Below are positions 18,701 through 42,962 of a stretch of 64,000 nt of DNA, piece by piece. The position numbers and the translations under genes were made by a program. Position 1 is the stretch's first letter; every line of letters starts with the position of its first letter. This DNA comes from Antedon mediterranea. Its lineage: Eukaryota > Echinodermata > Crinoidea > Comatulida > Antedonidae. The stretch lies in contig NC_092678.1 of the NCBI RefSeq assembly GCF_964355755.1, positions 24,842,365 to 24,906,364 of the forward strand. Direction: 5' to 3'. The notes under the pieces were generated by a model. The model was not told the DNA's origin. It worked only from the letters and a program-made list of their open reading frames with translations, and did no database searches.

Positions 18701-21700
18701 CCTAACACATAATGCTGCAAACTCAATCACTTGAAGATAGGCGGCGTTGAAAGGAACAGGCCACCCTAACACATAATGCTGCAAACTCAATCACTTGAAG
18801 ATAGGCGGCGTTGAAAGGAACAGGCCACCCTAACACATAATGCTGCAAACACAATCACTTGAAGATAAGGCGGCGTTGAAAGGAACAGGCCACCCTAACA
18901 CATAATGCTGCAAACACAATCACTTGAAGATAAGGCGGCATTGAAAGGAACAGGCCACCCTAACACATAATGCTGCAAACACAATCACTTGAAGATAAGG
19001 CGGCGTTGAAAGGAACAGGCCACCCTAACACATAATGCTGCAAACTCAATCACTTGAAGATAAGGCGGTGTTGAAAGGAACAGGCCACCCTAACACATAA
19101 TGCTGCAAACTCAATCACTTGAAGATAAGGCGGCGTTGAAAGGAACAGGTCACCCTAACACATAATGCTGCAAACACAATCACTTGAAGATAAGGCGGCA
19201 TTGAAAGGAACAGGCCACCCTAACACATAATGCTGCAAACACAATCACTTGAAGATAAGGCGGCGTTGAAAGGAACAGGCCACCCTAACACATAATGCTG
19301 CAAACTCAATCACTTGAAGATAAGGCGGCATTGAAAGGAACAGGCCACCCTAACACATAATGCTGCAAACTCAATCACTTGAAGATAAGGCGGCGTTGAA
19401 AGGAACAGGCCACCCTAACACATAATGCTGCAAACACTATCACTTGAAGATAAAGCGGCGTTGAAAGGAACAGGCCACCCTAACACATAATGCTGCAAAC
19501 TCAATCACTTGAAGATAAGGCGGCATTGAAAGGAACAGGCCACCCTAACACATAATGCTGCAAACTCAATCACTTGAAGATAGGCGGCGTTGAAAGGAAC
19601 AGGCCACCCTAACACATAATGCTGCAAACACAATCACTTGAAGATAAGGCGGCGATGAAAGGAACAGGCCACCCTAACACATAATGCTGCAAACACAATC
19701 ACTTGAAGATAAGGCGGCGTTGAAAGGAACAGGCCACCCTAACACATAATGCTGCAAACTCAATCACTTGAAGATAAGGCGGTGTTGAAAGGAACAGGCC
19801 ACCCTAACACATAATGCTGCAAACTCAATCACTTGAAGATAAGGCGGCGTTGAAAGGAACAGGTCACCCTAACACATAATGCTGCAAACACAATCACTAG
19901 AAGATAAGGCGGCGTTGAAAGGAACAGGCCACCCTAACACATAATGCTGCAAACTCAATCACTTGAAGATAAGGCGGCGTTGAAAGGAACAGGCCACCCT
20001 AACACATAATGCTGCAAACTCAATCACTTGAAGATAAGGCGGCATTGAAAGGAACAGGCCACCCTAACACATAATGCTGCAAACACAATCACTTGAAGAT
20101 AAGGCGGCGTTGAAAGGAACCGGCCACCCTAACACATAATGCTGCAAACTCAATCACTTGAAGATAAGGCGGCATTGAAAGGAACAGGCCACCCTAACAC
20201 ATAATGCTGCAAACTCAATCACTTGAAGATAAGGCGGCGTTGAAAGGAACAGGCCACCCTAACACATAATGCTGCAAACACAATCACTTAAAGATAAGGC
20301 GGCGTTGAAAGGAACAGGCCACCCTAACACATAATGCTGCAAACTCAATCACTTGAAGATAAGGCGGCATTGAAAGGAACAGGCCACCCTAACACATAAT
20401 GCTGCAAACTCAATCACTTGAAGATAGGCGGCGTTGAAAGGAACAGGCCACCCTAACACATAATGCTGCAAACACAATCACTTGAAGATAAGGCGGCATT
20501 GAAAGGAACAGGCCACCCTAACACATAATGCTGCAAACACAATCACTTGAAGATAAGGCGGCGTTGAAAGGAACAGGCCACCCTAACACATAATGCTGCA
20601 AACTCAATCACTTGAAGATAAGGCGGTGTTGAAAGGAACAGGCCACCCTAACACATAATGCTGCAAACTCAATCACTTGAAGATAAGGCGGCGTTGAAAG
20701 GAACAGGTCACCCTAACACATAATGCTGCAAACACAATCACTAGAAGATAAGGCGGCGTTGAAAGGAACAGGCCACCCTAACACATAATGCTGCAAACTC
20801 AATCACTTGAAGATAAGGCGGCATTGAAAGGAACAGGCCACCCTAACACATAATGCTGCAAACTCAATCACTTGAAGATAAGACGGCGTTGAATAGAACA
20901 GGCCATCCTAACACATAATGCTGCAAACTCAATCACTTGAAGATAAGGCGGCATTGAAAGGAACAGGCCATCCTAACACATAATGCTGCAAACTCAATCA
21001 CTTGAAGATAAGGCGGCATTGAAAGGAACAGGCCACCCTAACATATAATGCTGCAAACTCAATCACTTGAAGATAAGGCAGCGTTGAAAGGAACAGGCCA
21101 CCCTAACACATAATGCTGCAAACACAATCACTTGAAGATAAGGCGGCATTGAAAGGAACAGGCCACCCTAACACATAATGCTGCAAACTCAATCACTTGA
21201 AGATAAGGCGGCATTGAAAGGAACAGGCCACCCCTAAAGGCCCATTTACACTAGGACGATAACGATCGACGATAAATAGACAAATGTGCATTTTTCATAC
21301 ATAAAACAAAAGAAATATAAAAACTTTTCATTGTAGAACTATAGAATAACCTTCTATGCTTCCTTTGATGAAAATGATATTTTCACACGTCCAATCAAAT
21401 GACGTCATGATTAGTAAGAGCAATAATATCCTGACAATACAACGATTTTATTGTTTTTATTTATCATGACGTCATTTGATTGGAATTTTAAAAATATTAT
21501 TTTTATCAAAGACAGCATAAATGATTATCCTATAGTTCTAGAACGAAAACCTTTATAATTTATTTTGTTTTATGTAAAAAAAAATGCATGTTTATATATT
21601 TATCGTCCATCGTTATCGTCCTAGTGTAAATGGGCCTTAACACATAATGCCGAGGCTTAGAATAATGAGCTCCTAATCCTACTAGCTCGTTTCCCATGTT

Positions 21701-24700
21701 CAGAATGAATACTGGATTCACTCTACACAAAGAAAGTGTGGCATTTACCTTGAAACAAAAGAGTGTTGTGGTTGGGCACATGTCTTTTGAGTGACCACCA
21801 TTTAGCTCGTAACCATTGAGGTGAACGCACACTTCTCCATCCCTGAGCTAGGTCATCCCAGTTTATTGCACCTTCACTTGTTTCTTCTGTTGAAACTAAC
21901 CTATAATATTTATACAATAACTCATTTATTCTCATCCTCTCTTTAAAGAATATAACTTCCTACCATCATCAATCTGACTTAGATCCCACCATACACGAAC
22001 TAAGTCCCAAAGTCCACATCACTTTATTTTAAAAACAGCTTTAACAGACAGATGATTTAACTATTTTATTTCATATACGTTTGCTGTAAACTGAGATCTC
22101 AGTTTACACCTCACTAACATATTCATAAAATAGTGATCAAACTTCAACTTACAGGTAAGTCTCGTTTAATCTTCCTATTTATGTATATATATTTGTTGTA
22201 TATATTTCAAATGTAATACAGAAATGTACAGAAAGGAATTTCAAATTTATTGTATGTTATTCAATTAGCAATTAGATTTTCTAGAAATAAATAAAATCTC
22301 GTACTTTTCAATCAATTTGTCATCATCTTCTTTCAACCAGTATGTTCCACCCGTTTTTTTCCAGTTTAAATAATTCAGCCATTTTGTCCGACATTGTTTC
22401 TCCGACCTTGTTCCAACCTGCTGTGCGACCTGGTTCCATGACACACCTGTAGTGACACTTGACCCCGGCACAGCGCCGGTCAGGTCATAAACAGACTCGG
22501 CCAATAGTTGTTCTTCATCTGGACTCCATTTTCCTAGAATTGTGTAAAAACATATTCTCATTCTAAAGCTATGTCTACATTATCAAACTTTATGTGATAA
22601 AAAAATGTGTGATGTGCCCATATATGGACATGATGATGTCATATCTCTACCATATTTTGCATATCACTACCATATTTGGATACATCACACTTTTTTTCTG
22701 AAACTAGTTTGATAGTGTAGACAGAGCTTAATAGTAAACAATAAGATTACAGAATAATTGACTGTTTATTATTAAAAATAAATAATGAAAGAAATTTCAA
22801 AGGAGAGATTGAGGACTCTTGACGGTAGATATATACCTTGATGTGAGCATGGTTTTAAAAGTCTAAATTTGTCCTTAACTGATGACGCACTACGACCCAT
22901 CTCAGTTCCAATGGACGCCCAATCATTGCCGTACTGCTCATGAAGACTGAAAGACAACAGATATAAAGTGAATATAAAATAATCCATGCATTTCCAAAAA
23001 CTTTATTATTTTGTTGTTTTTGTTTAATGTAATATTGGTTTTATTCAATCAGTGATTGTATTCTTTTGTATGTTAAAGAAAAAACAAACAAAACAAATGT
23101 AGTATTAATAGTAAAAGATGAATAAGAGTTAATTTATTGTGGTTTCTAGTGACAATTTCCTTGAATCTAAACTTTAAAAAAAATATGGAACACACGTTTG
23201 ATTTTAAGGTAAGTTAAACTTACTGTTTTTTATGGATATGAAGTGCAAAATAAAGAGAAATTGATAAATTGAATGATAGTCATTTCTTCCATCTATGATG
23301 ATACTTCTATAAGCATTTACTTACTCTTTTAGCCTTTCAATATCTTCTACACTGTACCTAGTAAAGACACAAGTATAAAAGATGACTTTCCATTGAAACT
23401 AAGTTTTATTGCTTATATTATTGGGCAACTACTATATGTTAACTCTCTTGTAACCAATTTTGGCCAATGATATGCCTACAGTATTATTGTAGTTTTCAGT
23501 GGTCCAGCATATTACAAGACAAATTATAAATATAACATTCCTACAATTGCACCCTCTGAAAATCAGAAACTCTCCAAAAACATAATTTTTTTTTAAAACC
23601 AATAGATGCACTGATTATGTTTAAACAACATAAAACCAACTCTCCTCTCATTATTTGAAGTCAGTTTTATATTACATAATTTTATTAATAATCCCAAATT
23701 GGATAATACAAAATGTGCAAATAGTTATTTTATGTCATGGCAGTAAGTCAAATAGGTTAGAAATACAACATTATTTCCATGTCACTTACTTGCCCATGTG
23801 GTTTTTAGTGTCATACATTCGTATTATCTTGCGATAGACTGCAAATAGAGGGCGGTTCAGTCCTTTTGCGATAAACCGATAGAATCCTTTACGTTCATCT
23901 TTCTTCATACAAAATATGACCTCTTGAGGATTAGTTAGATTCTCAATCTGAAAACAGAATTCATTTTTATAAAATGTTAGAGAAATAAGAAAAAAAAAGA
24001 AACAATGTCTTTGTTTGATTCCCTGTTACTACATGTGCACTTCAAGCCAAAACCATAGTATCACCAAAAGAATCTCCTATACCCCAGGGAAAAATTTCAT
24101 TTGAAAATTTTGTTTAGCAAAATTGCTATCAAACTGATTTTTTAGTCAAGAAACATAGTTTTGTATTGTATTTTTTGCTACACAATTGTAGAAATGTGTA
24201 GCAAAAAGGTTGTTTTGTATAGCTTTTTGCTATGCTACACTGGCGAAATTATTCCCTGATACCCATAATTAAGATGGACTTAAAACTGGAGGTTAAGTAC
24301 ACTTAATGTGCACTTAACAGAACCCAGTGAATATTTTGGTGTACTGGTCAATTTAAGCCCCTGTCACTAATGGAAACCACAAGTATGTCTCAATGGGATG
24401 AAAAGTAACGTATTTATTCTCATAATATAATTATAAGCTATACCTGAATGTATTCTGCTATATTTTTTTTCAATATGTCAATTTCATCTTTAGACCATAC
24501 ACCTTGTTTCCAGTTATGACCTGAAAAATATATTATATTATTATTATTATCATTTTTTAAATACATTGAATATACAGTTGCATTTCCTATAGAATGCAAT
24601 GGAAATTCTGTATATTATTTTACAGAATTCAAATTGAGGGCTCACTATACAATATTCTGATTACAACATAGAGGCATAGGTCCAGTGTACACATCTGCCT

Positions 24701-27700
24701 CATGTGCACTTTAAATAACCTAGTACATCTTTTGAGACGAGTAGGGGGTTACCCCGGTGTACTAATACATCACAGCCACTGATCATAACTGGGCCCTCTG
24801 GTGGGAGACCAGTCTTTGACTGAAGAGGTCACCCAGTATATTCTGATTACAACATAGAGGCATAGGTCCAGTGTACACATCTGCCTCATGTGCACTTTAA
24901 ATAACCTAGTACATCTTTTGAGACGAGTAGGGGGTTACCCCGGTGTACTAATACATCACAGCCACTGATCATAACTGGGCCCTCTGGTGGGAGACCAGTC
25001 TTTGACTGAAGAGGTCACCCAGTATATTCTGATTACAACATAGAGGCATAGGTCCAGTGTACACATCTGCCTCATGTGCACTTTAAATAACCTAGTACAT
25101 CTTTTGAGATGAGTAGGGGGTTACCCCGGTGTACTAATACATCACAGCCACTGATCATAACTGGGCCCTCTGGTGGGAGACCAGTCTTTGACTGAAGAGG
25201 TCACCCAGTATATTCTGATTACAACATAGAGGCATAGGTCCAGTGTACACATCTGCCTCATGTGCACTTTAAAGAACCTAGTACATCTTTTGAGACGAGT
25301 AGTAGGGGGTTACCCCGGTGTACTAATACATCACAGCCACTGATCATAACTGGGCCCTCTGGTGGGAGACCAGTCTTTGACTGAAGAGGTCACCCAGTAT
25401 ATTCTGATTACAACATAGAGGCATAGGTCCAGTGTACACATCTGCCTCATGTGCACTTTAAAGAACCTAGTACATCTTTTGAGACGAGTAGGGGGTTACC
25501 CCGGTGTACTAATACATCACAGCCACTGATCATAACTGGGCCCTCTGGTGGGAGACCAGTCTTTGACTGAAGAGGTCACCCAGTATATTCTGATTACAAC
25601 ATAGAGGCATAGGTCAAGTGTACACATCTGCCTCATGTGCACTTTAAAGAACCTAGTACATCTTTTGAGACGAGTAGGGGGTTACCCCGGTGTACTAGTA
25701 CACACAAACAAACATTGGTAATCAGCAAACTTTTATAGTAGTTGTCTATCAAGGGGGACACCTTTGGACTCAACAGAAAAGGGGGACACCTTTGGACTCA
25801 ACAGAAAAGGGGGACACCTTTGGAATCAACAGAAAAGGGGGACACCTTTGGACTCAACAGAAAAGGGTGACAACTTTGGACTCAACAGAAAAGGAGGACA
25901 CCTTTGGACTCAACAGAAAAGGGGGACACCTTTGGACTCAACAGAAAAGGGGGACACCTTTGGACTCAACAGAAAAGGGGGACACCTTTGGACTCAACAG
26001 AAAAGGGTGACCCTGCTCAAAAGAGTTTGTTCGTAGTTGTAAAATATACTGTTCCTTATTCTAAGGTAAAGTTTCCCTTAGGAAGTTGTCCTAAAAAGGA
26101 GTGTCCCACAATGCACAGTAACTTTAATTAGGAGAATGTTTGTCTTACCTTGTTCAGTTAAATTGTCTTTGCTTTGCTTTGATGTGAACCAGGATTGAGT
26201 TATAGGATCAAAAGTTTTATTTCTTGTGAACGCATTCTGAGATGACAAAAACTTTTAAGTGAAATACAACAGATGTCATGATATTATGTAAAAAAATCTT
26301 ACTGTATGTACTTATGATCTAATGATAGTAACAGACGATACAACTGACCTCATCGTGAGAAAACTGTGGAAGTGTATTGGCTAAGCTAACTGCTGCTGAT
26401 GCGCCTTCTAATTCATTATCTGGTGAAAAAAAAAATAGTTATCTTTAATTTAATTCCCGTCAATTTTCTATCATTATTAACACGGACCAGAATAAAAAAG
26501 GCATTTTCTGAAGTTGTACCTCAAATAAAAAAAATAGAACACAGAGAAAAACATAAGCAATGTTGATATCAACAAACAATAAAAGCACTCAGAAACTGAG
26601 TGAAGTACTTGGCAAAATATATCAGGGAAAACTTTATTCGGAGAGAAAGGAATCACTACTTAATATTAATGTTAAATGAGAAAACATCTCATTGGAAGAT
26701 ACAGGAAGGTTATATTCTAGTTCAATAAGCTATTTCAAAACTTTAATTTTAATTCAAAACTAAATCTAATTAATGCTCAATGATTAAAACTTCTTTTATC
26801 TTGTTTCAAAATCTCAATTATTTATGTTTTAACCTTTAAATGTGCTTACTTTAATTGTGTTAATTTGATTTTGATAATTTTAGGTTTAATTTTATATTTT
26901 CTTTTGTCCATTTATATACTGTATTTTGTTTACATTTATGTAGTTAAGAACTGAACCACTTTGGAAATCAGTACATTGTAATGAAAGTGTATTTCAGAAT
27001 AAAGAAAGATTAAATAAATAAATAAATAAAATTTGTGGCATGAGCAATATATCAATTTTCCTGAAAATCAGGTATGTTCTGTAAGTATATAACTATGTAC
27101 ACCGACATTTTAAGAATGCTAACTTAAAAACTGCTACCATGCTAACAAACTAAGCAAGTAATATACTTAGCAAAATTCTATTTTTCCAAGTACTAATTGA
27201 CAAACCTTGTACGTCATGAAGGCTTCCAACTGTGATGTTCTGATCTGCAACGTGAATAACTTTGGCCTTTTTTATCATAAAGTTATTGATTATTGAATTA
27301 TCTTTTCGTTTGTAGTCATTTAATACACCTGAAATTAAAGTAAGATGAAATATATATGAACAATAAAAATTGGTGGAAAAAAGCTTAATTTATATAATTT
27401 ATCGTGCCTATAAACTAACGCCCGTATTCTTAAACCGGACTTTAGTCGTAGTTCGAAGTTCAACTTGAAAAAGTCGTAGTTCGAGCTATTACTTCAAATT
27501 CGATTAAAAAACGAAGTAGTCGAAGTTTGCAGTTCGACTTTATGAAGTCGAGCTTTTAGTCGAGTTGCACACGTCTGGGTAACAAAGGCTATACATTGGC
27601 CAATGACAAGAGAGTATTTGAGGAGCAGACGAAATTTTGCGCATTGATATCACTTTCCATTTTCTTACAACACTTTTTACGCATCAGGACTATACATGAA

Positions 27701-30378: not shown

Positions 30379-30384
30379 TTTATT
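30379..30384 (-). terminator. Polyadenylation signal of the CUB gene
   Basis: AATAAA on the minus strand, 22 nt past the stop codon at 30406-30408. The short spacing implies a very compact 3' UTR. Confidence 0.65.
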
Positions 30385-30405: not shown

Positions 30406-33400
30406 TTAACAGAAATAACCCCAACATGATTGTTTATTACCAAATCCAAATATACTACTAGGTCTTTTCGTTGTTTGCAACGTCGCTGGTGGTGGTCGGT
30501 TCAATGTAATTCGCCAGGGTGTCGTAACCAGTCGTGGTGTCGTAACCAGTCGTGGTGTCGTAACCCGTCGTGGTGTCGTAACGCGTCGCGGTGTCGTAAC
30601 GCGTCGCGGTGTCGTAACGCGTTGCGGTTTCGTAACTGGAAGTATCTCCACGTTCTCAAATGCTGCATACGTTCCGTAATATCCAGTTCTCGCCAGAATT
30701 TCGTCACTTTTGAATAATAATGTTACTTGGTTGCTGTCAGACTTCCATATGAAAGGCGCGTCGAGAGAGCCACACAGAGGTTCACTACTTCTTCCCGTTA
30801 CGTCATCGAAGATCTAGAATAGAAGATTTGAATCAATATTTTATTCGTTATGACCTTTGCAATTCATTATCATAAATTGTTCAATTGCGGGTGTTATTGT
30901 GTGTATTTGTATATTCAACTTTCAGACGAACTGTCCATGTAGATACTGTAACGGAGCCAACAGGAGACCACTCCTTAGAATTCAAATTCAAATTATTTTT
31001 TTTGGCAACAAAGTAAACATTATACTGGGTTTAAGTTTAAGATCTAAAATTATTGGGATTAAAACAAGGATTATGAATTACGCAGAAAACATAAGTTGCG
31101 TCTTTACATTATCTTGCTTTACTGAACCACCTTGAACCAAGCTGCCTGGTAATTCATTAATACAAATAAATATGTTAACACGCTAAAGAATATAAACTAT
31201 ATACCGCTGTCATGTTCACCTGTGCGTGCTATTGTTATCTAAATTATTTGTATGATTTATTTATTTTTTATTTTTAAATGCGCCTTGAGCACTCTGGAGT
31301 GGTATGTGCGCTATAAAAATCTTATTACTATTATTATTATTATTATTATAAATTATGAGATCGTTCAGGAATACAGTTACGGTTACGTAAATACATACGA
31401 ATCATTATAGAGATTCTTACAGAGACAATAAAAACGCATTATGTAACAATCATCAACAAAATCATAAAGAGAGGACCAAGAAGTATCTGTTGACATAGTG
31501 CCTCTCCATTTAAAATCCAGCAATATAATATTTACCTGTACTGAATCCCATTCACATAGCTTGTAGTTTTCTATATCCATAAAGCGTATTGTAATGACTA
31601 TGTGCGTGTTTTTCTTCGTCTCTATGACCGTTCGGCACAACGCGTTGTTAGGATAATAAAGCGGAAAGTTCGGACTATGTATTATGCCATAGCTTTCCGT
31701 CAATCTTCTGGCTTCCAGGTCGCAGTGAGGAGGCAATGTTGCCGAAACTGAAAGATAATGAAATAAAATATTTAAAAAATACGGACAAAACAGAAACATC
31801 TACAGCAGTCGTAATTGAATTGTGAGCAGCCGAGCAGCGGCAACATGACATTTCGCTTACCAATGGTCGGTGTGTTAGGTGGTGGCGCTATCGATGTATA
31901 CATGGCTTTGAATCCACGATACGTGTTACTGCCATCTGAATGGAAATGAATAACCACGTGATTCGCAGTGATGAATATATATTGTTCGAGTTGTCCACAT
32001 AGTTTGAGATCGTGTGACGTATACGTCAGCTGTAAAAAAACAGATTTATTTTACTCAATGTACGGACAACTTACGCATTTTCCTCCCGGAAACACGCCAA
32101 TAGATAAATATCTATAGAGCGCGCGCCTTCATTTTTTAAAGCTTGTTCCCACTAGGACGCAACGCAAGGACGTAGGCCTACGCGCAAAACACTAGTGATT
32201 TGACCACACAAGCAATGGATTATATTCGAACAATGTCATTGGGTAGAATTTTTATGATGATTATTTTCACACGTACCTGAACAAAGTCTGAACACAAGTT
32301 TAATAGCGATGGTTCCAATTCAAAATCTAAAAATTCGATCCTTAGAACTTTCTGTTCATTTGGGTTCAAACTGATTGTGTAAACGCAGTCTAAATTGTTG
32401 TCGTAGTTTGATGGATAGTCCGGCGTTGAGAACATGCCGACTGGACCTCCCAAAGTTCTTGAACAATTCACTACAATGGAAATAGAAAATTCATTGTACA
32501 ATTTTATGAAACAGCATAATATTTGAATGAAAATAAAGATAGAAAAATAAAAACATTAGGCTAAACTTGAGAAATTAAACATGGAAGCATGGGATAGTTT
32601 AACAGAATCCATTAAATGTTTTGAGGCAATGGCATTATAACGAGGTTTATCATAATTCTTCTTCATTGCATGATGTAATTTACCTTGTGGAGCTTCTATA
32701 AGATGAGTCTTGTATGTGGCTAGAAATCCTGTCTTTGTTACAATGTGATCAGTGTACAATCGGACCACTGCATTGTTTGTTGTCGAGTTCCATTTAATTA
32801 CATTGTGTTTACCGCAGTAACGTTGGCTTGTTCCTTCACCCGTAGGCCTACTTGAAAGCTGCAAAAATATTTGATTGTCATTTTTAATAAAATATGTACA
32901 GAAGTATGTATGAAAAGAGTATGCATATATTAGCTAGCTCGTTTAAAGATGTATTGTCCCTTTGACTAATTCCAACAACATTGGAAAAAAAAGGATTTCG
33001 TATCCTAATCATAGTATCATAATAGTTATTATAATAGTCATTTAACTGAAATACAGACGTTTTTTGTTAAAAAAATAACTTTAACTGCCAGTCAAAGTTT
33101 TTGATCAAAATATATCTCATAATGCACTGCGCTTGTTTGGCTACTCAGTATGCATAATTATAAAACTTCCTCGCGATCAAACACCTTCTCAACCGTGACG
33201 AGTTGTACAATCCTAATTAGCATATGCATACTCGACGTGGTTTTAAATCTTTGTTTACCTTCGCTCACGACGATTTTCCAGACGAAATGTAATCAAACTA
33301 ATTTACCTGTTAATTACGTAAACTTGTTTTTGGCTCGAATTTAAAGTAAATAACTTTAATATTACATTAATATGGCCAATTTAAATTTAGACTATTTTTA

Positions 33401-36400
33401 CCTTCATTTTTTGTGTTTCAAGGGTCAATACATCTTTAAGGCTCTGTCTACACTAGACATATTTTGACAAAAGACAAAAAGACAAAAATGTGCCAAATAT
33501 GGTAGTGATAATTATGCTTAATGGTAGTAATACGACATGTCACATAAAGTTTGATAGTGTAGACAGACTACCTCAACATAGTCGTTGGTGCAATGCGGAC
33601 TCTCTTCCAACTCAAACTTTTGAAATGTCACTTGTATAATGTGATGAGGGTCTACGATAATCGTGTATTCGCAGTCTAGGTTGTTTGGATACTTTGCCGG
33701 GAAGCTCGGTGAATGGAATGTGCCGGATTCATCAACGAGTGTGACGTCACAATCTGGGAAAAGAACCAATACATTATTTGAAATAACGCAGTGCAGCGTT
33801 TCATTCTACTTACTATAATGTTTATCGCAAATAGCGTGCGCGACGCATGGTGGGAAGGATTTGGGACCAAACGTCACGACGCGTACGTACGTTGTTTGTA
33901 CGTACGCGTCGGGACATTTGCTCCTAAACCCTTCCCATCATGCATCGTGCAATCACATTCCTCGCGAAATCAAGCTACTTGCGATAAACCTTATGTAAGG
34001 AGTATGTTATAATCTTATACAAGGAGTAGGCCTATGTCATAATCTTATGCAAGGAATATGTCATAATCTTATGCAAGGAGTATGTCATAATCTTATGCAA
34101 GGCGTATGTTATTATCTGATGCAAGAAGACTTACATGACACTCTGTCTAACGCATGCATCTTGTACGTTGCATTGAATCCGTTGAACGCATGCGTACTGT
34201 CCGTGACAAACGTTATGTTTACTTCGTTACTCTCAGATTCCCAAATCAAATTCTGATGTTGTCCACAAATGATGCTCGTTTTACCGGTCCCGACATCCTC
34301 AACCTTAACATGTAAAAAGAAGTTGTTTTATGGTGTAAGAATGTATGCATGTGCACGGTAGATTGAATTCCGCACAAACGTACATCTGTACGCGCGCGTT
34401 AATCGTGTCGTTAACTGGTTTATTCTAATCCTACCTTGACGTAATCTCTTTCACAAGGCGTTTGTAACTCCACATTAAAGAAAATGAAGTCAATAACTAT
34501 GTTTTCACCAACTTTGCCTTTGATGAAATAGAAGCACAACTGGTTGTTTTCATAAAGAGGCAGTCCTTGTGCAATGTTTGGCGATTGAATGACTCCGTTT
34601 GGTCCAAGGTGAGTTTTATTACAATCTACAAAGAAATGAATAATAATAATGCACAGCTCTCAAAACCTTTATGCCCAATGACTTACGACTGATTGTACGT
34701 TGAAATAAAATACGTTTTTTACATGTAGTGTAAACGTGCCTTTCAATGAATGTGTGCGATGCCGGCCAGGTAACCAGCAGTGACTACAATACGTTTCTTT
34801 TTTCAAACTTACATGTAGTGTAAACGGGCCTCTCTAGGAATGTGTACGATGCTAGATAACCAGTGTGAGCAATGCTGTAATCCGTGTGTAAGCGAAGCAG
34901 TAAAGAGTTCCCTTCAGATGTCCAGGAGAATGGCTCATGTCGACTACAAATACGTTCGGAATGGTCGTATTGAAAGACTGTGGACGTGTCGGTTACCTAA
35001 AATGAGACATGAAACGAATGATGAGCATATTCGTGAATCCAGTTGACGTGAAAAATACTATGTAAGCTAATGTATCGTAATTACATTTAAGAAGTCGTGT
35101 AGACATCCCATTGCCGTGGTCTGTTCAAGCCAAAACGTTGTAAACACAACTTGAATTCGGGAGTTGGATTTAACTTGAATGATCATGTCGCATTCGTCGT
35201 CATTGCGGTAGTTAGCTGGGTAGTTTGTGGTCTCTAACTCGTTGTTGCTACCAGATAACAGCACTTTATTGCATTCTGTAACAAAAAAACATCGTAAACA
35301 TCGTTTTTAAAATGTTATTCCACTCGGACGCCGCAATGCTAGGAGTCGCGCAATGCAACCGGGTTTACCAATCATAAGAATCATGGCGTTTCGTGATTGA
35401 TCAAATTACTTGGGTTGCTCGTATATTCTCGCTTTGCACGCGTGCGTCCCTGTGGGAACCAAGTCTTAAGCTCTGTCTACACTATCAAACTAGTTTGATG
35501 TGATGTGCCCAAATATGGTAGTGATATGACCTGTCCATTTTCTGTCACATAAAGTTGGATAGTGTAGACAACATTTTTGTGACGACAAAATGTGAGTGCC
35601 CATACGGACATGATGACTTTACCGGATGGTGGTGCTTTTAAAACCGATGTATATTCGACTTTGGTAGCGTGCTCATCCCTGAGAATATCAACGATAACCT
35701 CGTTACTGTCCGATATCCAGGACATCAATCCATTAAAGAATTCACAATCTATGTAGCTGCGACGTGTCGTTGAGTCCGTTATCTGTTTAGGAAAACAAAA
35801 GTTAGAATGCCATGGTTTTTTACACAAAGGACTAGTTACATTACTTGCCCAACCGGCGTTCCATAGGAAAACACTATAATACAGCAATGGGCACACTTAC
35901 GGTAATGCCGTCATCGACGCAGTCATGTTTCTCCTCAATGGTATGGAAGTAATTTAACACCAGGCGATAGTTCGGCAAAGTGCGTATAACTAGTTGATAC
36001 GTGTTTGTCCCATCCACAGATATTTCACCACTTTCTTCCTCCAACAAAACTATACAAGAAAATTTAAAAATATAATATACAGTACATAAAAATGTCTGAA
36101 CAGGTTATTAAATAGGCCACAAGTCACGTTAAATAGGCCGACAAGTCACGTTAAATAGGCCGACCAAGTCACGTTAAATAGGCCGACCAAGTCACGTTAA
36201 ATAGGCCGACCAAGTCACGTTAAATAGGCAGACCAAGTCACGTTAAATAGGCAGACCAAGTCACGTTAAATAGGCCGACCAAGTCACGTTACCTCGGATT
36301 CGATCTGATCTTGTAAGCAACTGCCAGTGTGCCAACATACGGGGTATTTTATCCTTACTGGCGAACACGCGTATAATCAATTCGTTGGTATCTGCCGTCC

Positions 36401-39400
36401 ATGAGAATGAGTGCGAGATTTCGCAGTAAGTGTCCGTTCGTTGAGTTGCAAGATCGGATACCTATAAAAAAAATGCATTATGATTAACATGTGAAGGTTC
36501 TTTATTACCACTTTTTAAAGTTTTTCCTAGTGACTTTCACAGTGGGCCGCGTCACTCTAAGCGCAGTCATTGTGCGCACGCTCAGATATGACGCAGAAGA
36601 CCTCTACATACCTGAATGCCACTATCGGAACAATTAAACACCTCATCGAATTCATCCACGGTTAATGTTATCCTGTTTGACGGGTTTGTATAAATGTAGA
36701 AAAAACATTCAACGTGCTTGGCATCTTTCACGGTGAAATCTGGTATTTCAATGTCTGTAACTTCGTATAGTCTTATGTAACAATCTGAAATTACAATTAT
36801 GTTATTTTATTATCGGTTATTCCTTTTCTTCAAATACATTTTAATATACCAAAGTCATTTTACTAACCCCTGACAAGCGGTCGTTGTATATGTCTAAACT
36901 GGGCTTTAAAACCAGTCGCTCCTGTGGTTTTTCGTCCACTACGGATAGTAACCGACACCTCATTGGCATCCGACGTCCAAGAGAAAAGTAACTGAAGTCC
37001 ACAAAACGAGTCCATACGACCGGTCCCTAGGTCTTTAACCTCAACATGGTCTTCTTCACACGGCTGGACATCAAAATCTGTGAAGTTTAGTGACACGAGG
37101 TTACCGGGCTCTGAATGAACTATGTAGCGGCATTCGGCGTTGGTGGAGTATGGAAGCGGGAAGTTTGGCGATTTTATGATTCCTGTTTGTTGGATGATTC
37201 GATGATCACAACCTGGAATATAATTTAGTAAACATGTTATTACAGACGTCGGTAAACATGTTATTACAGACGTCAGTAGCTTCATTTGTAGACCAAGAGT
37301 ATTAGAGCCTATTCATTTTAAATGGTTACCTTCAACACGTGAAAGCGAGAGATAAGCGGCTCTGAACACATTGTAGGTTGGAAAGGTGTTAATACGGAAC
37401 GTGATTGCGACAAGGTTTTGGTCAGATGTCCAGGTAAATAAATCGAATTCACCGCAGTATACATTCGTTCGACCAGTTGTTAGATCTTTGATCTTCAAGA
37501 AAGAGAAAAGTTCATTAATAACATCTATAATTGTTTTATGTTAACAAACTATCTTTGCTAAACTTACCTCCAAGAACTGTTCATCTGTACACGTAATTGT
37601 TTGGCGATTTCTATCTTGTTTTTCTCCAATCAAAAAGTCGGTGAATGTAACGAGAACACTATTTTCTGGAGCGATTTGGACGTAAATCGTACAGTCCTTT
37701 CCAATAATGTCGTCACGATTGTGTTCCAAAGACGAAATAGTTCCTTTACCGGATGTTAAGAATTGATTGAACACTGAAACAAACAAGCACAGGAATAATT
37801 ACTGTCGTTTTCATTTCATTTTCTGACTGCGGGAATATTGTGACCCATTTCCCTATTAAATTTTCTATTTAGTTGAACAAACGCCAAAGATCAGCCGACT
37901 TACCAGATACTTTTGGTCGTGGAATAAAACGGTAGGTCGCTTGAACTTTCGCAACCGATTTTGTATTTATTCTGAAATCCATAGAAATTTCATTCGATTC
38001 ACTTAACCAGGAAAACTCCCACAATGTTGAACAGAACTTGTCTTGTCGCTTTGTCGTCACGTCTTGGATCTGCAAAAGAAAAGTTAGAAAACGTAATATA
38101 CTTTGCCTATGCATCGTTTTTAGAGAAGCATGCATCCGGGTTCCGTTGACAAGAGTCTCCAAGTATTATTTTGGAACCTCCTCTCATAGTTTACGGTTGT
38201 TGTGTGCAAGTGAGATTGGTTCAATACGACCAGAACAAAGAGTGAAAAGGTCGTTAAAATCTAAAATCAAATATAAACCACCTCTCACAAATGACTGAAA
38301 ACCAGGGAATAGGGCCTGATACGACTAATTAAAAATAATGCATTGGATAAACAAACATGTTCTTACAGTGATTGAGTGTTCCGAGCAAACACCTCTCTCC
38401 ATTGTCAGTGTATGGAACGTCAACAGGATATGTTCGTGTGGAGAGCTACGTATAACAACGTTACAATGACTGTTGTCGCGTTGCTTGGAGAATGGCCAGC
38501 TAATAGAACCAGATGGTTCAGTTAACAGAAGTTGACATCCTGAAAAGATGAAAAACTGTCAGTAAGTGGATACCACTACTAACTAACATTAACACTAACT
38601 AACAAAACACTAGTTATAGTTCATTGGTTAATTAAACTAACACTAACAAAACATTAGTTATAGTTACTTCATTGGTTAATTATGGATTACCTTTCTCTGG
38701 TCTTGGTATTGTCTCATAATCAACAATAAATGACACTGATGAGATCTCATTTTCATCGCGGATGAAGATTGCAAGTTCGTTGCCGGAACTAGTCCAGGAA
38801 AACTGACTCAAATGACCAGTGTACCTCCCTTTGCGGCTTTCTCCGTCCACGATGTCGTAAATCTGTTGATGAAAACATTGGTATATTTTATTTCGATTTC
38901 AACTCAATGTGTTTTATATTCTGGAAATGTAAATGTAAACACTTTACCTCTACGTAATCTTTATCGGAATCCAAGTCCGATACGGCAAAGCTGACGAATT
39001 TCAATCTTATTTTCTCGTCTGGGTCGGCATGAATGACGATCAGGCAATCGGATCCTTCAATCGGTGGCCAGTCGGGATTCACCGGTAACTGAATGCGTTC
39101 AGATTTTTCAGTCAGATATCTACTACATTCTGTTGAAATAAATAAAGTGTACGCAAATGTGTCCTACACGCACTACTCGTGCGCGCACGACGCAGATGCA
39201 CGGGCTTCATAATGCGTAATGGCCGGTGATCTTACCCGTGTTTTCCGGTGTTCTGATTGGTCGCTGTATTATTGTAAAAACTGCCTTGAATCCGATCTGT
39301 TGATTTTTATCGTTTGTTTTAAATTCAAGTGATACTTCATTTGAATCTGACGTCACTGAAAACGGTAACTTCGATCCACATATTCTGTCAGAAAATAGTC

Positions 39401-42400
39401 CACTCGTTCCACTCTTGAACTGTTTTAAATATAAATATCACAAAATTGTCGAAAAAATACCTAGATATAGGGAATAATAAATATGAAATGGCAACTATGG
39501 AACGCTCATTGTGTCTAGAGTTACCTGTATAAAATCGGTCACACAACCTTCCGAACTTTCCAGCTCAAATTCTTCAAAATTAAACACTACATATCGGTCT
39601 GGTGACTCGCGTAAAGTAATCGTACATGATGTATCGGACGGGTAATCGGACGGATAGTTCAATGACGTCAAGATGAAAGATGAATCGTCTCTACGAGTTA
39701 TGGTCATGCAGTCTGTGAAATATAAAACGAAATAAAGATAAGACAAAGTTATAAATAAGTACTACCACCATATACATTTTTTGAAGTTCACATTTATTTA
39801 GCCAAGAACAAAAGCAGCAGTTATTAAAAGACTTAACACAAACCTCTGCCAACAAAGATAAGTACCAAACATGACTAACAAACTAAGTATACATACTAAG
39901 TATACATACTTTACCTGGAGGGGGTATTCTTGGCACCGACTTAGCAATAAGTTTTACACCAGTATAATCAAGCAAGTGATCTGTTTTGAAAGTCATGAGG
40001 ATTTCGTTGCTGTCTGACGTCCAAGAAAAGTTGTGGTAACTACCGCAAAGATGAGAAAACCTATTCGTTGCAAGATCCCGGATCTAAATTAAAATGTAGA
40101 TCAAACGATTAGTCAAAAGCCAAGTCATTAAGTGATTAGCAAAACTAGAAATACTATGTAGGCCTCTACGTATGAATTATGACGGGCGGTTGTCGCTCAG
40201 GATAGATACACATTCTACGTGGAACAAGCTACGCGGTTTGCTTACCATTAGGCCTACCTCTCGTCTGTGTAAATTAAAAAAAAAGAGGGTTTTGTTAACC
40301 TGACAGAAATCATTCAAACACATTTCACCACGTTCGGTTTTTCTTGGAGGTTGCATGACAAATTCCGAGACATTCAGTGTTATCACGTGATCAAGTCGAG
40401 TGTGTAAGATGTATATACAGTCCAAGTTGCTAGGATACGGTTGTGGAAAGTTGGGTGTATGCAGTTCTATGCCACTTGGTGGAAAAGCCAGTAGTAGATG
40501 ACTGCAACCTGCGAAATAAAGGTAAACAAGGTTACTTTAAACGGTACTGATTGGCACTGCTGTCATCTCTAAAGCCCCGTCTACACTATCAAACTAGTTG
40601 GACAAGGAAAAGTGTGATGTGTCCAAGTATGGTGGTGATATTCCCAAATATTCCCATGTCCATATTTGCATATCATATTTTTTTGTCAAATAAAGTTTCA
40701 TAGTGTAGACAGAGCTTAATTATTCCCAGGCGCCCACCCCCGCACCACATATCACGTGACCTCTTTACTTACTTCTGTTAGCATCGCGTTCATTCACTTC
40801 GTATTTGAAATCTACAATGTTTCTTTCGTCGTTGTGGAAATGTACAACTATTGCGTTAGATTCAGAAGTCCACGCAATTTTGCTGTGTTCTCTACATATG
40901 CTTTCCGTTCGTCCCGTTAGTAAATCTTTTATCTAGAAATGATAAAACTCAATCTGAATAGATGAAAAAAAAAACTGTAGGCCTACACACTGTACACGCA
41001 ATAACGTGCGTTTATCTTGTATACTTAATAGTAGTTTAAATAGTAATGTACCTTTAAAGACCATTCGCAGTTTTGAATATTAAGGTCTGTAAACGCAAGT
41101 GTAACGCGTTTATCTGGTTTGGCCAGTATCACTATCTCGCACTTGTTTCCTTCTGAGTATGTGTTGCTATGTCTGCCTCTGTTTGCGTACATTCCGGTGT
41201 CCTCAATAAAAACCCGATTGCACTCTTTAAAAAAAAAGTTTTGTTATTAAATGTTGGGAGTTGTATGGTAGGCCTAGGTCACGCCTATTACACGCATATT
41301 ACACGCCTAGGTCACGCCTATTACACGCCTATTACACGCCTAGGTCACGTTCTGATGTAAAATTCAAATAAAAGTACCATAGTTTGGTGGTTTGTCGACT
41401 GTAAAATAGGTGGCGTTAAACCGGTTGAAGACTTTACTGGATAAGGCGTCCATTATCACAGTTACCTCGTTTGAGTCGCTCAACCACACGAAAGGATGAA
41501 ACGTCCCACAATATCGATCATGGCGGTTGGTTTGGATGTCACGAATCTGAAATATAACAAGGTTTTACTATTAGGCCTGTAATATGTAGGTAGACCAGGG
41601 GCGGATTGCTATAAGCGGTCTATAACCGGTGTTAGCGCTTAGCCGGCTATAATTCGTGACGTAGCAAGTAGTCTTATATTATAGACCATTGCTATACCGC
41701 GGTCTTTAAAATTAAAGCCTACTCGAAGGAGTCTTAAAACAGTCTTAAACCTCTCTTGTTGTTGCTTTTACGTATTATTATCGTCAAAGATAACCAATTG
41801 AACGAGTTTTAAGTGTTAAATCAAATAATAACGGTGATTTTATTCTTATATAGGCCTAGAATAGATTTTCTCGTGTATAAATGTACGTACTGTTATGATT
41901 TGTGAATTGAACAAGCGTGACGAACATTACCTTATTTGGTATTCTACGCGCAAAGTACGTCTCAATTTGTTACTTTACGTGGTCTTATTTAAGACTGTTT
42001 TATAGCAATGGTCTATCAGGAGTGGCTTTAATAAGACCGTCTATCTGATAAAGCCGGCTTTAATCCACCCCAGGATTTACCATGTTATGATGGGATATGT
42101 CCTTAATATAATTTTCGAGACACCAAGTTGTGGTTTCAATTTCTAAATGCATTGTACACGTAGTGAGTAGTGACGAATTATATTTATTTATTCAGTGAAA
42201 CATAAATATAACAAGGGAGCACTGAGGAGTTGTATCTCCAACATCCGGCAAACAATACAAGCAAAATAAAATAAAGAATTACAAAAATACGTCATACCTC
42301 TACGTAATTATTGCCGTCGTCACACGCATTGGTTCCTTCAAGAGTGAAATTGTTAAACGTCATCAAAATCCGTTTACCGGTTGGCACCCGAACCTTCACT

Positions 42401-42891
42401 TGACATTCGGTAAAATCCACCGATTTCCTCGGCCAATTCGGAGATGTTATGCAACCAGTTTCGCGTTCGAGAATTCGGTCACAATTCGGAGGAATGATGA
42501 CTACACTGCCACCTTGTCGTTGTTCAAACTTCTAAAAATATCCATAAATAGTTATCTTTAAGTTTCAATAGACCTATACTTTAATACTATAATTATCTAT
42601 TCATTTAGGTTTAAATTCCTAAGAGACTTTCAATTTTTTTGTCGTGCAAAAAATGTTCTCAACTACGACGTATATGCAAGAAATCGTTGCACATTCCATG
42701 CGACACCTCCTAAATGGATGCGTGCCACGTACATACAGTAATAGGCTACACTTATATTATTTATTTACGATTGCAGCATCTCAGCTAAGTACTTTGATAT
42801 TATGTATATTGTAACATACCTTAGGTTTAGCAGTTGCACTAAGGCATAGCACACCGAGGAGGAACAGCACTGCATTCCACGTGACTCCCAT
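30406..42891 (-). CDS. Secreted protein with 15 tandem CUB domains and a Thr/Pro/Arg tail
   Basis: Thirty exons: 42820-42891, 42298-42531, 41378-41546, 41052-41224, 40773-40932, 40300-40508, 39915-40083, 39525-39712, 39236-39419, 38948-39129, 38691-38862, 38367-38539, 37904-38069, 37568-37773, 37330-37492, 36868-37212, 36612-36784, 36293-36461, 35901-36049, 35623-35782, 35085-35275, 34813-34996, 34435-34625, 34135-34303, 33572-33753, 32684-32858, 32277-32470, 31861-32029, 31536-31747, 30406-30813. Phases agree throughout, giving 1896 aa. Exon 1 is a signal peptide (MGVTWNAVLFLLGVLCLSATA). Fifteen CUB domains follow with no EGF, LDLa or protease domain. Each spans two exons split in phase 0 and bounded in phase 1, except CUB8, which is one exon (36868-37212). 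Typical motifs are SPNFPxxYP, DYVEV and WTSDSNEV. Most domains have the four CUB cysteines; CUB5 lacks C3 and C4, CUB10 lacks C1 and C2, CUB7 lacks C1. The tail has about six VTTPRR units and ends in CWGYFC. I see no membrane anchor. Cubilin-like matrix or ligand-binding roles are possible; the function is unknown. Confidence 0.93.
30515..30640 (-). repeat. 18-bp coding repeat (VTTPRR) in the CUB gene tail
   Basis: About seven copies of an 18-bp unit encode six-residue units VTTPRR/VTTPRL in the last exon. They form a basic, threonine-rich, likely O-glycosylated tail after CUB15. The frame is maintained because the unit is a multiple of three. Openness of the opposite strand here is a shadow. 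Confidence 0.9.
31262..31352 (+). mobile_element. Retroposon 3' end with (ATT)n tail
   Basis: GCGCCTTGAGCACTCTGGAG, TATGTGCGCTATAAAAA and a TTATTA microsatellite tail form a characteristic LINE-type 3' end. It lies in the last intron of the CUB gene. Confidence 0.6.
32139..32197. mobile_element. MITE family B end fragment
   Basis: AGCTTGTTCCCACTAGGACG followed by CAACGCAAGGACGTAGG matches one end of the family at 47396-47616. It lies in a CUB gene intron. Confidence 0.55.
33438..33569. mobile_element. MITE family A, copy 6, abutting a splice donor
   Basis: AAGGCTCTGTCTACACTA at the left and AAAGTTTGATAGTGTAGACA at the right. The right terminus lies within the first few intronic bases after the CUB exon 33572-33753, so the minus-strand donor reads GTAG followed at once by MITE terminal sequence. 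Confidence 0.8.
33821..33988. mobile_element. Near-perfect 168-bp palindrome (MITE-like hairpin)
   Basis: The outer ends are TTTATCGCAAATAG and CTACTTGCGATAAA, and the middle is GACGCGTACGTACG against CGTACGTACGCGTC with a 4-6 nt loop. Intermediate parts (GCATGGTGGGAAGGATTTGG and its complement-like partner) pair with few mismatches. It is an intronic, non-coding element in the CUB gene. Confidence 0.8.
33992..34125. repeat. 24-bp tandem repeat, ~5 copies, beside a splice donor
   Basis: Copies of a unit containing CATAATCTTATGCAAGGAGT. The array begins about 8 nt inside the intron after the CUB exon 34135-34303. Confidence 0.85.
34723..34783 (-). pseudogene. Intronic duplicate of the 3' part of CUB exon 34813-34996
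   Basis: About 60 bp (ACATGTAGTGTAAACG, AATGTGTGCGATGC, TAACCAG on the plus strand) repeats the tail of the adjacent exon with its donor. A TTGTAG acceptor-like site stands directly before it on the minus strand. It is a partial exon duplication about 30 nt into the intron; use as an alternative exon is unproven. Confidence 0.55.
35316..35467. mobile_element. MITE family B, diverged copy
   Basis: TTCCACTCGGACGCCGCAAT at the left and CCCTGTGGGAACCAAGTCTT at the right, around a CCAATCATAAG/CGTGATTGATC inner inverted repeat. It is immediately followed by a family A MITE. Confidence 0.55.
35468..35617. mobile_element. MITE family A, copy 7 plus fragment, beside a splice donor
   Basis: A complete short copy (35468-35572, both terminal repeats present) is followed by an inner fragment (GTGCCCATACGGACATGATG). 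The fragment stops about 5 nt inside the intron after the CUB exon 35623-35782. Confidence 0.75.
36112..36292. repeat. 22-bp minisatellite starting at a splice donor
   Basis: About eight copies of AATAGGCCGACCAAGTCACGTT. The copy touching the exon reads GTCACGTTAC, so the donor GTAACG of CUB exon 36293-36461 is itself part of the first repeat unit. Confidence 0.9.
40572..40717. mobile_element. MITE family A, copy 8
   Basis: Complete element with ends AAGCCCCGTCTACACTATC and TAGTGTAGACAGAGCTT, in a CUB gene intron. Confidence 0.8.
41270..41352. repeat. Short tandem repeat (GGTCACGCCTATTACACGC)
   Basis: Alternating TAGGTCACGCC and ATTACACGCC units, about 25 nt from the donor of the CUB exon 41378-41546. 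Confidence 0.8.
41595..42074. mobile_element. 480-bp inverted-repeat element in a CUB gene intron
   Basis: CCAGGGGCGGATTGCTATAA at the left pairs with a right end ending TTTAATCCACCCCAGG. Inner motifs (AAGCGGTCTAT, AGACCATTGCTAT, ATAGCAATGGTCTATC) repeat in both orientations. No coding capacity was seen; the family is not identified. Confidence 0.6.
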
Positions 42892-42954: not shown

Positions 42955-42962
42955 CTTTTATA
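42955..42962 (-). promoter_or_regulatory. TATA box of the CUB gene
   Basis: TATAAAAG on the minus strand, about 64 nt upstream of the ATG at 42891. It predicts a transcription start near 42925-42930 and a leader of about 35 nt. A TATA box in an otherwise AT-rich genome is weak evidence alone, but spacing and context fit. Confidence 0.65.

What the first reader, a model, noticed from the sequence alone, without database searches (positions are those of the whole stretch)
30406..42891. A 15-CUB secreted protein made only of CUB modules
The reconstructed 1896-aa protein has a signal peptide, 15 consecutive CUB domains and a short basic Thr-rich tail, with no EGF, LDLa, protease or membrane segment. 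Cubilin, the best known long-CUB protein, has EGF repeats before its CUB domains. Fourteen of 15 domains are encoded by exactly two exons, split in phase 0 and bordered in phase 1, a clear record of module duplication. I do not know a described protein with this architecture.
Basis: partly seen in the sequence, partly recalled or inferred. Interest (0 to 1): 0.75.

Follow-up and report, generated by a model that had tools for sequence, protein, structure and literature searches.

The report
Fifteen-CUB secreted protein with calcium head
A probable echinoderm gene makes a large secreted protein built almost only from fifteen CUB modules; five sister genes keep the same fifteen in the same order, and only the last five modules keep the calcium site that CUB proteins use to grip partners, so it looks like a long arm with a calcium-dependent binding head.

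Summary
On the minus strand, 42891-30406, 30 exons give an uninterrupted 1896-aa protein: signal peptide, 15 CUB domains, short Thr/Arg-rich tail; no EGF, protease or membrane segment was found. It is not a lone oddity. The same genome holds at least five more genes on C7 with the same 15 domains in the same order, about 61% (P1-P4) and 47.5% (P5) identical; four have clean reading frames and one (P2) a shifted splice site. The architecture is therefore old and maintained; the tail is not conserved. In all six genes domains 11-15 keep the Tyr-Glu-Asp-Asp calcium tetrad (30 of 30), and none of 40 domains 1-10 tested keeps it. The two-exon, phase-0 CUB module also occurs in the genome's cubilin-type gene, so it is not peculiar to this one. 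Best explanation: a secreted, multivalent, Ca2+-dependent binding protein with a Ca-free ten-CUB arm and a five-CUB head. Function, expression and occurrence in other species are untested. My capped searches of an open-licence paper library showed no description. Verdict: real; a new variant of a known kind; moderate interest.

The parts
42955..42962 (-). TATAAAAG, possible TATA box 63 bases before the ATG
   Evidence: position checked; consensus only, not tested
42820..42891 (-). exon 1: start codon and signal peptide (MGVTWNAVLFLLGVLCLSATAKPK)
   Evidence: matching exon ending AKPK in P1-P4; hydropathy
41378..42531 (-). CUB 1 (exons 2-3); carries a conserved fifth Cys
40773..41224 (-). CUB 2 (exons 4-5), least conserved domain between window and P1 and P5
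39915..40508 (-). CUB 3 (exons 6-7)
39236..39712 (-). CUB 4 (exons 8-9), sister of CUB 3 in the tree
38691..39129 (-). CUB 5 (exons 10-11); second cysteine pair lost in all six genes yet highly conserved
37904..38539 (-). CUB 6 (exons 12-13)
37330..37773 (-). CUB 7 (exons 14-15); three Cys, first Cys position lost in all six genes
36868..37212 (-). CUB 8 in a single exon (exon 16); single also in P1-P4, two exons in P5, so an intron was most likely lost
   Evidence: CUB fold by model and Foldseek
36293..36784 (-). CUB 9 (exons 17-18)
35623..36049 (-). CUB 10 (exons 19-20), degenerate, two Cys
34813..35275 (-). CUB 11 (exons 21-22), YEDD calcium tetrad
34135..34625 (-). CUB 12 (exons 23-24), YEDD calcium tetrad
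32684..33753 (-). CUB 13 (exons 25-26), YEDD calcium tetrad; one exon in P1-P4
31861..32470 (-). CUB 14 (exons 27-28), YEDD calcium tetrad
30637..31747 (-). CUB 15 (exon 29 and first part of exon 30), YEDD calcium tetrad
30406..30636 (-). 76-aa Thr/Arg-rich tail with repeated RVTTPR, ending CWGYFC, and stop codon; not conserved in sister genes
30379..30384 (-). AATAAA, possible poly(A) signal about 21 bases after the stop
   Evidence: position checked; consensus only

Best explanation
A secreted protein of the extracellular space that binds partners through calcium at several points at once. Domains 11-15 each carry the Tyr-Glu-Asp-Asp calcium site and together form a five-site binding head. 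Domains 1-10 lack that site but are kept by selection, and serve as an arm or scaffold that sets reach and may hold subunits together (domain 1 has a spare Cys and domain 7 an unpaired Cys in all six genes). Shown here: the gene, its layout, its sister genes, selection on the protein, the tetrad pattern, the odd cysteines. Inferred: secretion, calcium binding, multipoint ligand binding, the arm role and any disulphide link. Not known: ligand and tissue.
For: Signal peptide and no other strongly hydrophobic segment. Same 15-domain order in five sister genes. pN 0.248 against pS 0.816 for window-P1 and 0.356 against 0.821 for window-P5. YEDD in D11-D15 of all six genes, 30 of 30; in 0 of 40 domains D1-D10 of W, P1, P4, P5. 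A 12-CUB relative on C7 has YEDD in 6 of 12 domains, five of them among its last six (several of its pieces are cut short). Papers, passages seen: calcium-binding CUBs use Tyr-Glu-Asp-Asp and bind by multipoint attachment through several CUBs (PMC10850435); the calcium loops form the ligand site in ligand-bound tandem CUB structures (PMC8051872). Odd cysteines of D1 and D7 conserved.
Against: No expression, binding or localisation data exist here. Calcium sites are read from sequence only. Domains 1-10 could bind partners without calcium, as ADAMTS13 CUBs do (PMC8051872 passages), so 'arm' is a guess. W_D10 matched three of the four positions (SEDD), though it lacks the Tyr and the first disulphide. 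The YEDD motif is not confined to this family: 4 of 5 cubilin CUBs tested have it, so the head is ordinary and only the split is distinctive. Odd cysteine counts also occur in D3 of W and P5 but not of P1, so not every odd Cys is fixed. In P5 a hydrophobic window of 1.90 in domain 10 is a weak sign against a freely soluble P5. Only one genome was available.
Confidence: 0.5

Rival explanations
1. A free recognition factor of coelomic fluid or of the egg or sperm surface: immune or gamete recognition, diversified by the C7 tandem array.
For: Secreted and multivalent by sequence; four near-identical tandem copies on C7 (98-99% identical); the genome has a bindin-type match. A starfish proteome paper lists an unspecified 'CUB' protein with a secretory phenotype in coelomic epithelium (PMC13409769, passages); whether it is related is unknown.
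Against: Low dN/dS among the copies (0.20-0.45 in the five of six pairs computed), no sign of the fast change expected of arms-race proteins; no expression data.
Confidence: 0.2
2. A structural or adhesive building block (matrix, mucus, glue) in which the CUB array is a mechanical chain and the tail is a glycosylated or cross-linking end.
For: Long repetitive secreted chain; Thr-Pro repeat tail ending in two Cys; odd cysteines.
Against: The tail is absent or different in the sister genes; a sea-star footprint protein paper names CUB in its text only for an astacin-like protein, besides a legend and a reference (PMC9382459, three passages).
Confidence: 0.15
3. A cubilin-like endocytic receptor subunit held at the membrane by amnionless.
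For: Cubilin is the nearest solved structure by sequence (3kq4_B, E 1.1e-45); a mid-CUB phase-0 intron is shared; amnionless-family matches exist in the genome.
Against: Cubilin docks through its N-terminal region, before the EGF repeats (PMC8710305 passages); this protein has only about 19 residues between the likely end of the signal peptide and the first CUB Cys, and no EGF. A separate cubilin-type gene exists.
Confidence: 0.1
4. A model artefact: several genes or a decayed gene read as one.
Against: Five collinear genes with the same first and last domains; intact frame and GT-AG introns; introns of at most 751 bases here and at most 1735 in the sisters, while neighbouring C7 genes stand 4 to 9 kb apart (coordinates); purifying selection.
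Confidence: 0.03

Closest known systems
Cubilin (CUBN)
   Same: Long tandem CUB array; best solved-structure match by sequence; calcium tetrads; a phase-0 intron in the middle of many CUBs of this genome's cubilin-type gene.
   Different: Cubilin has a 110-residue N-terminal region, 8 EGF repeats and 27 CUBs (PMC8710305 passages); here no EGF, a very short N-terminus, 15 CUBs of which ten lack the tetrad, and a Trp in the 'FxWTSDSNEV' strand in 13 of 15 domains where none of the five cubilin CUBs tested has it.
M02D8.5-type CUB proteins (Pfam PF23062, PF23061)
   Same: Pfam models for CUBs of a CUB array; the third-CUB model matches at 2.7e-19.
   Different: Their full architecture was not examined (recalled as a smaller nematode CUB protein); none of the six papers listed holds that name.
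Calcium-binding CUB modules of C1s, MASP, tolloid and neuropilin
   Same: Same fold (domain 8 model) and tetrad in D11-D15.
   Different: Those proteins join CUBs to EGF, protease, sushi or coagulation-factor domains (recalled); here CUB only.
Q gene, C7:25471420-25485638, same genome
   Same: CUB pieces and no EGF pattern in the 22 kb examined, Trp motif; its first domain groups with CUB 1 (96/68) and its fourth with CUB 11 (96/90).
   Different: 12 CUB pairs found; not modelled, ends unknown.

Membership tests
CUB domain proteins | Pfam CUB profile over the cut-off | tested here: met
   617.3 bits against cut-off 21.4, 13 stretches
CUB domain proteins | CUB beta-sandwich fold | tested here: met
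   one of 15 domains tested: D8 model pLDDT 77.5, pTM 0.70; the 50 Foldseek matches shown are proteins with CUB domains, for some entries by recall
Cubilin | EGF repeats before the CUB array | tested here: not met
   no EGF family; in the six gene models the signal-peptide exon joins the CUB 1 exon in frame with no exon between
Cubilin | N-terminal region of about 110 residues for trimer and amnionless binding | tested here: not met
   about 19 residues before the first CUB Cys if the signal peptide ends at residue 21; length of the cubilin region from PMC8710305 passages
Cubilin | 27 CUB domains | tested here: not met
   15
Cubilin | membrane docking through amnionless | not testable with these tools
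   amnionless family matches exist on C10; binding not testable
Calcium-binding CUB (cbCUB) | Tyr-Glu-Asp-Asp motif in domains 11-15 | tested here: met
   six genes, 30 of 30
Calcium-binding CUB (cbCUB) | Tyr-Glu-Asp-Asp motif in domains 1-10 | tested here: not met
   0 of 40 domains in W, P1, P4, P5; P2 and P3 not tested for these domains
Calcium-binding CUB (cbCUB) | bound calcium | not testable with these tools
   needs protein
Tolloid/astacin or MASP/C1r/C1s proteases | protease domain | tested here: not met
   no protease family
Spermadhesins | a single small CUB domain (recalled) | tested here: not met
   15 CUBs

The most novel reading that the evidence does not exclude
A family of secreted CUB-only proteins, perhaps proper to echinoderms, in which a fixed 15-CUB chain has been divided into a ten-CUB calcium-free arm and a five-CUB calcium-switched head, joined into larger assemblies through conserved odd cysteines in domains 1 and 7: a class of calcium-gated extracellular linker not described so far, derived from cubilin-type exon modules.
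Probability: 0.25. Interest if true: 0.55.

Novelty: new variant of a known kind. Interest (0 to 1): 0.4.

Why it matters
CUB domains are usually mixed with proteases, EGF or receptor parts, which hides what the CUBs do alone. A gene family made almost only of CUBs, with order, number and calcium sites kept over a long time, gives a clean natural test of which CUBs bind through calcium and which act as spacer. It also suggests that the exon-pair module of cubilin-type genes was reused as a stand-alone secreted protein.

Tried and rejected
Rejected: lone gene or artefact (five collinear genes); degenerate N-terminal domains as decay (D1, D5 and D7 are among the most conserved domains, 0.74, 0.70 and 0.76 identity window-P1); the tail as a defining part; module duplication as recent.

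Paper searches for this architecture showed no description in what they listed; several lists were capped (10 of 196: 6 of 1,261: 20 of 227, mostly about cubes). Subscription papers and protein databases were not searched. Alignment A3 was misaligned and dropped for A4. pS is near saturation, so no dN/dS ratio is given for window against P1 or P5. Of the sister pairs P1-P4, five of six were computed (P2-P4 not). Rows left out: P2 and P3 in the and 67 tables, and P2, P3 and P4 in the tree; P2 and P3 were checked for D11-D15. The intron test on the cubilin-type gene used 16 of 26 first-half pieces, chosen because they end near the place of the intron here; of the other ten, five end earlier and five run past it (counted), so that gene uses more than one intron layout. 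One search was given residues 1-1821 of 1896 and scored 26 of 303 candidates; one search scored 150 of 521. So counts of sister genes are lower bounds.
Full report
What is there. The minus strand of the window from 42891 to 30406 was rebuilt exon by exon. Thirty exons with GT-AG introns give 1896 aa without a stop: a signal peptide, 15 CUB domains and a 76-aa tail. A TATA-like site lies 63 bases before the ATG and an AATAAA about 21 bases after the stop (positions). Pfam finds CUB at E 2.5e-189 with 13 stretches passing alone, and the three other families listed up to E 1 are CUB-type. The best solved structure by sequence is cubilin, E 1.1e-45. Domain 8, the only domain in a single exon, was folded from the window's own letters (pLDDT 77.5, pTM 0.70); the 50 Foldseek matches shown are CUB-bearing proteins (some by recall) such as neuropilin, MASP, C1r, TSG-6 and cubilin. 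The other 14 domains were not folded.

It is one of a family. The protein (residues 1-1821) searched against its own genome of 354 Mb in 18 contigs matched its own exons and a collinear series on C7. Exon-by-exon mapping gave four genes, P1-P4, with exons 2 to 30 in order, and a more distant gene, P5, beside them. Gene models: P1 1844, P3 1844 and P4 1853 aa in 29 exons, P5 1847 aa in 31 exons, all without internal stops. In P5 two weak exons (domains 2 and 10) were placed by eye from splice sites and alignment. P2 has an extra base at the start of its exon 6, so it may be broken or use another splice site. Each has a signal-peptide-like first exon. Identity of the window protein is 60.6-60.7% to P1-P4 and 47.5% to P5; P1-P4 are 98-99% alike. 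Substitutions fit a protein under selection: pN 0.248 against pS 0.816 for window-P1, 0.356 against 0.821 for window-P5 (pS near saturation), and dN/dS 0.20-0.45 in the five pairs computed among the recent copies. This is the strongest evidence that the 15-domain reading frame is one real gene. No RNA data were available.

Age of the array. In a tree of 64 domains (window, P1, P5, the Q and R genes and five cubilin CUBs), 13 of 15 positions form a clade of the window, P1 and P5 domains, 12 of them with strong support; positions 13 and 14 join only window and P1. The tool warns of few columns for so many rows. So the array was most likely complete before these genes parted. Within the array only domains 3 and 4 are well supported as sisters (96/94). 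Domain 8 has two exons in P5 and one here and in P1-P4, so an intron was most likely lost; P1-P4 have also fused the two exons of domain 13.

Relation to cubilin. The genome has a separate cubilin-type gene on C2: 42 CUB pieces between 20384313 and 20483689, and one EGF pattern just 5' of them at 20484078-20484281 (the gene was not modelled). Of 26 first-half CUB pieces there, 16 end near the place of the intron in our gene (count); in 13 of these 16 the best donor is in phase 0. The other ten end elsewhere. A tolloid-type gene (CUB and EGF pieces) is on C6. A further relative on C7, 25471420-25485638, has 12 CUB pairs and no EGF pattern in the stretch examined; its first domain groups with domain 1 (96/68) and its fourth with domain 11 (96/90). 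Amnionless-family matches exist on C10.

The main new pattern. Calcium-binding CUBs carry Tyr-Glu-Asp-Asp (PMC10850435, passages). All of domains 11-15 have it in all six genes, 30 of 30. None of 40 domains 1-10 in the window gene, P1, P4 and P5 has it; P2 and P3 were not tested for these. W_D10 reads SEDD and scored as complete when only E-D-D was asked, but it lacks the Tyr and the first disulphide. For the window gene alone, five of five against none or one of ten has P 0.0003 or 0.002 by Fisher's test; the genes are related, so they are not independent trials. The first ten domains are not decaying: domains 1, 5 and 7 are among the best conserved (0.74, 0.70, 0.76 window-P1), while domain 2 is the least (0.40). 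Fixed oddities: domain 5 lacks its second cysteine pair, domain 7 lacks its first Cys (three in all), and domain 1 has an extra one. Domain 3 has five cysteines in W and P5 but four in P1, so some odd cysteines vary.

How it most likely works. In ligand-bound tandem CUB structures the calcium loops form the ligand site (PMC8051872, passages), and binding usually uses several CUBs at once (PMC10850435, passages). By inference, domains 11-15 form a five-site, calcium-dependent binding head and domains 1-10 an arm or scaffold, possibly linked to other chains through the odd cysteines. Signal peptide and lack of another hydrophobic stretch in this protein argue for a free secreted protein; P5 has one window of 1.90 inside domain 10. 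Ligand and tissue are unknown. A cubilin-like receptor role is less likely because the N-terminal region and EGF repeats that cubilin has (PMC8710305, passages) are absent.

Tail. The 76-aa tail is a local feature: an 18-bp repeat, absent or different in the sister genes. I give it no role.

Organism. A bindin domain match (E 2.3e-28) suggests, by recall of where bindin occurs, an echinoderm of the sea-urchin or sea-star kind. No name was given and none is claimed. Whether the family occurs in other species could not be tested.

Novelty. Nine paper searches (lists partly capped) showed no CUB-only protein of this kind in the open-licence library. Protein databases were out of reach, and records named 'cubilin-like' there may well hold orthologues (recall). 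I rate it a new variant of a known kind.

Noticed in passing
window 4338-7305 (-): LINE-type retroelement: an endonuclease reading frame (PF03372) followed by a reverse transcriptase frame (PF00078).
   Followed up: partly
window 17679-21233; 12837-13989; 24652-25706: Large tandem repeats: 65 bp x 54.8, 68 bp x 17.0, and 186 bp x 5.7.
   Followed up: no
window 36108-36291: 23-bp repeat x 8.1, nearly all inside the intron between exons 18 and 19 of the CUB gene.
   Followed up: no
window 54287-54700 (-): Part of an MFS_5 type transporter (PF05631, E 4.4e-18), so another gene lies about 11 kb 5' of the CUB gene.
   Followed up: no
C7:5894791-5958074: Four near-identical 15-CUB genes, 9-10 kb each, starting 17-18 kb apart; exon 21 ends in what looks like a GC donor in all four.
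   Followed up: partly
C7:5886544-5888257 (P5, domains 13 and 14): P5 domain 14 is the best match of window domain 13 outside its own position (95.9 bits): possible gene conversion or re-duplication in P5.
   Followed up: no
C6:24192878-24236352: Eight CUB matches with the same score, 59.4 bits, spaced about 5-9 kb: another tandem CUB array.
   Followed up: no
C10:22667615-22671970: Four CUB matches inside one uninterrupted 2120-aa open frame, so a multi-CUB gene with few or no introns there.
   Followed up: no
C7:9374554-9376431: A two-CUB stretch with an 'FHWTS' motif in its first CUB; further CUB hits at C7:9427869-9453867 suggest copies.
   Followed up: no
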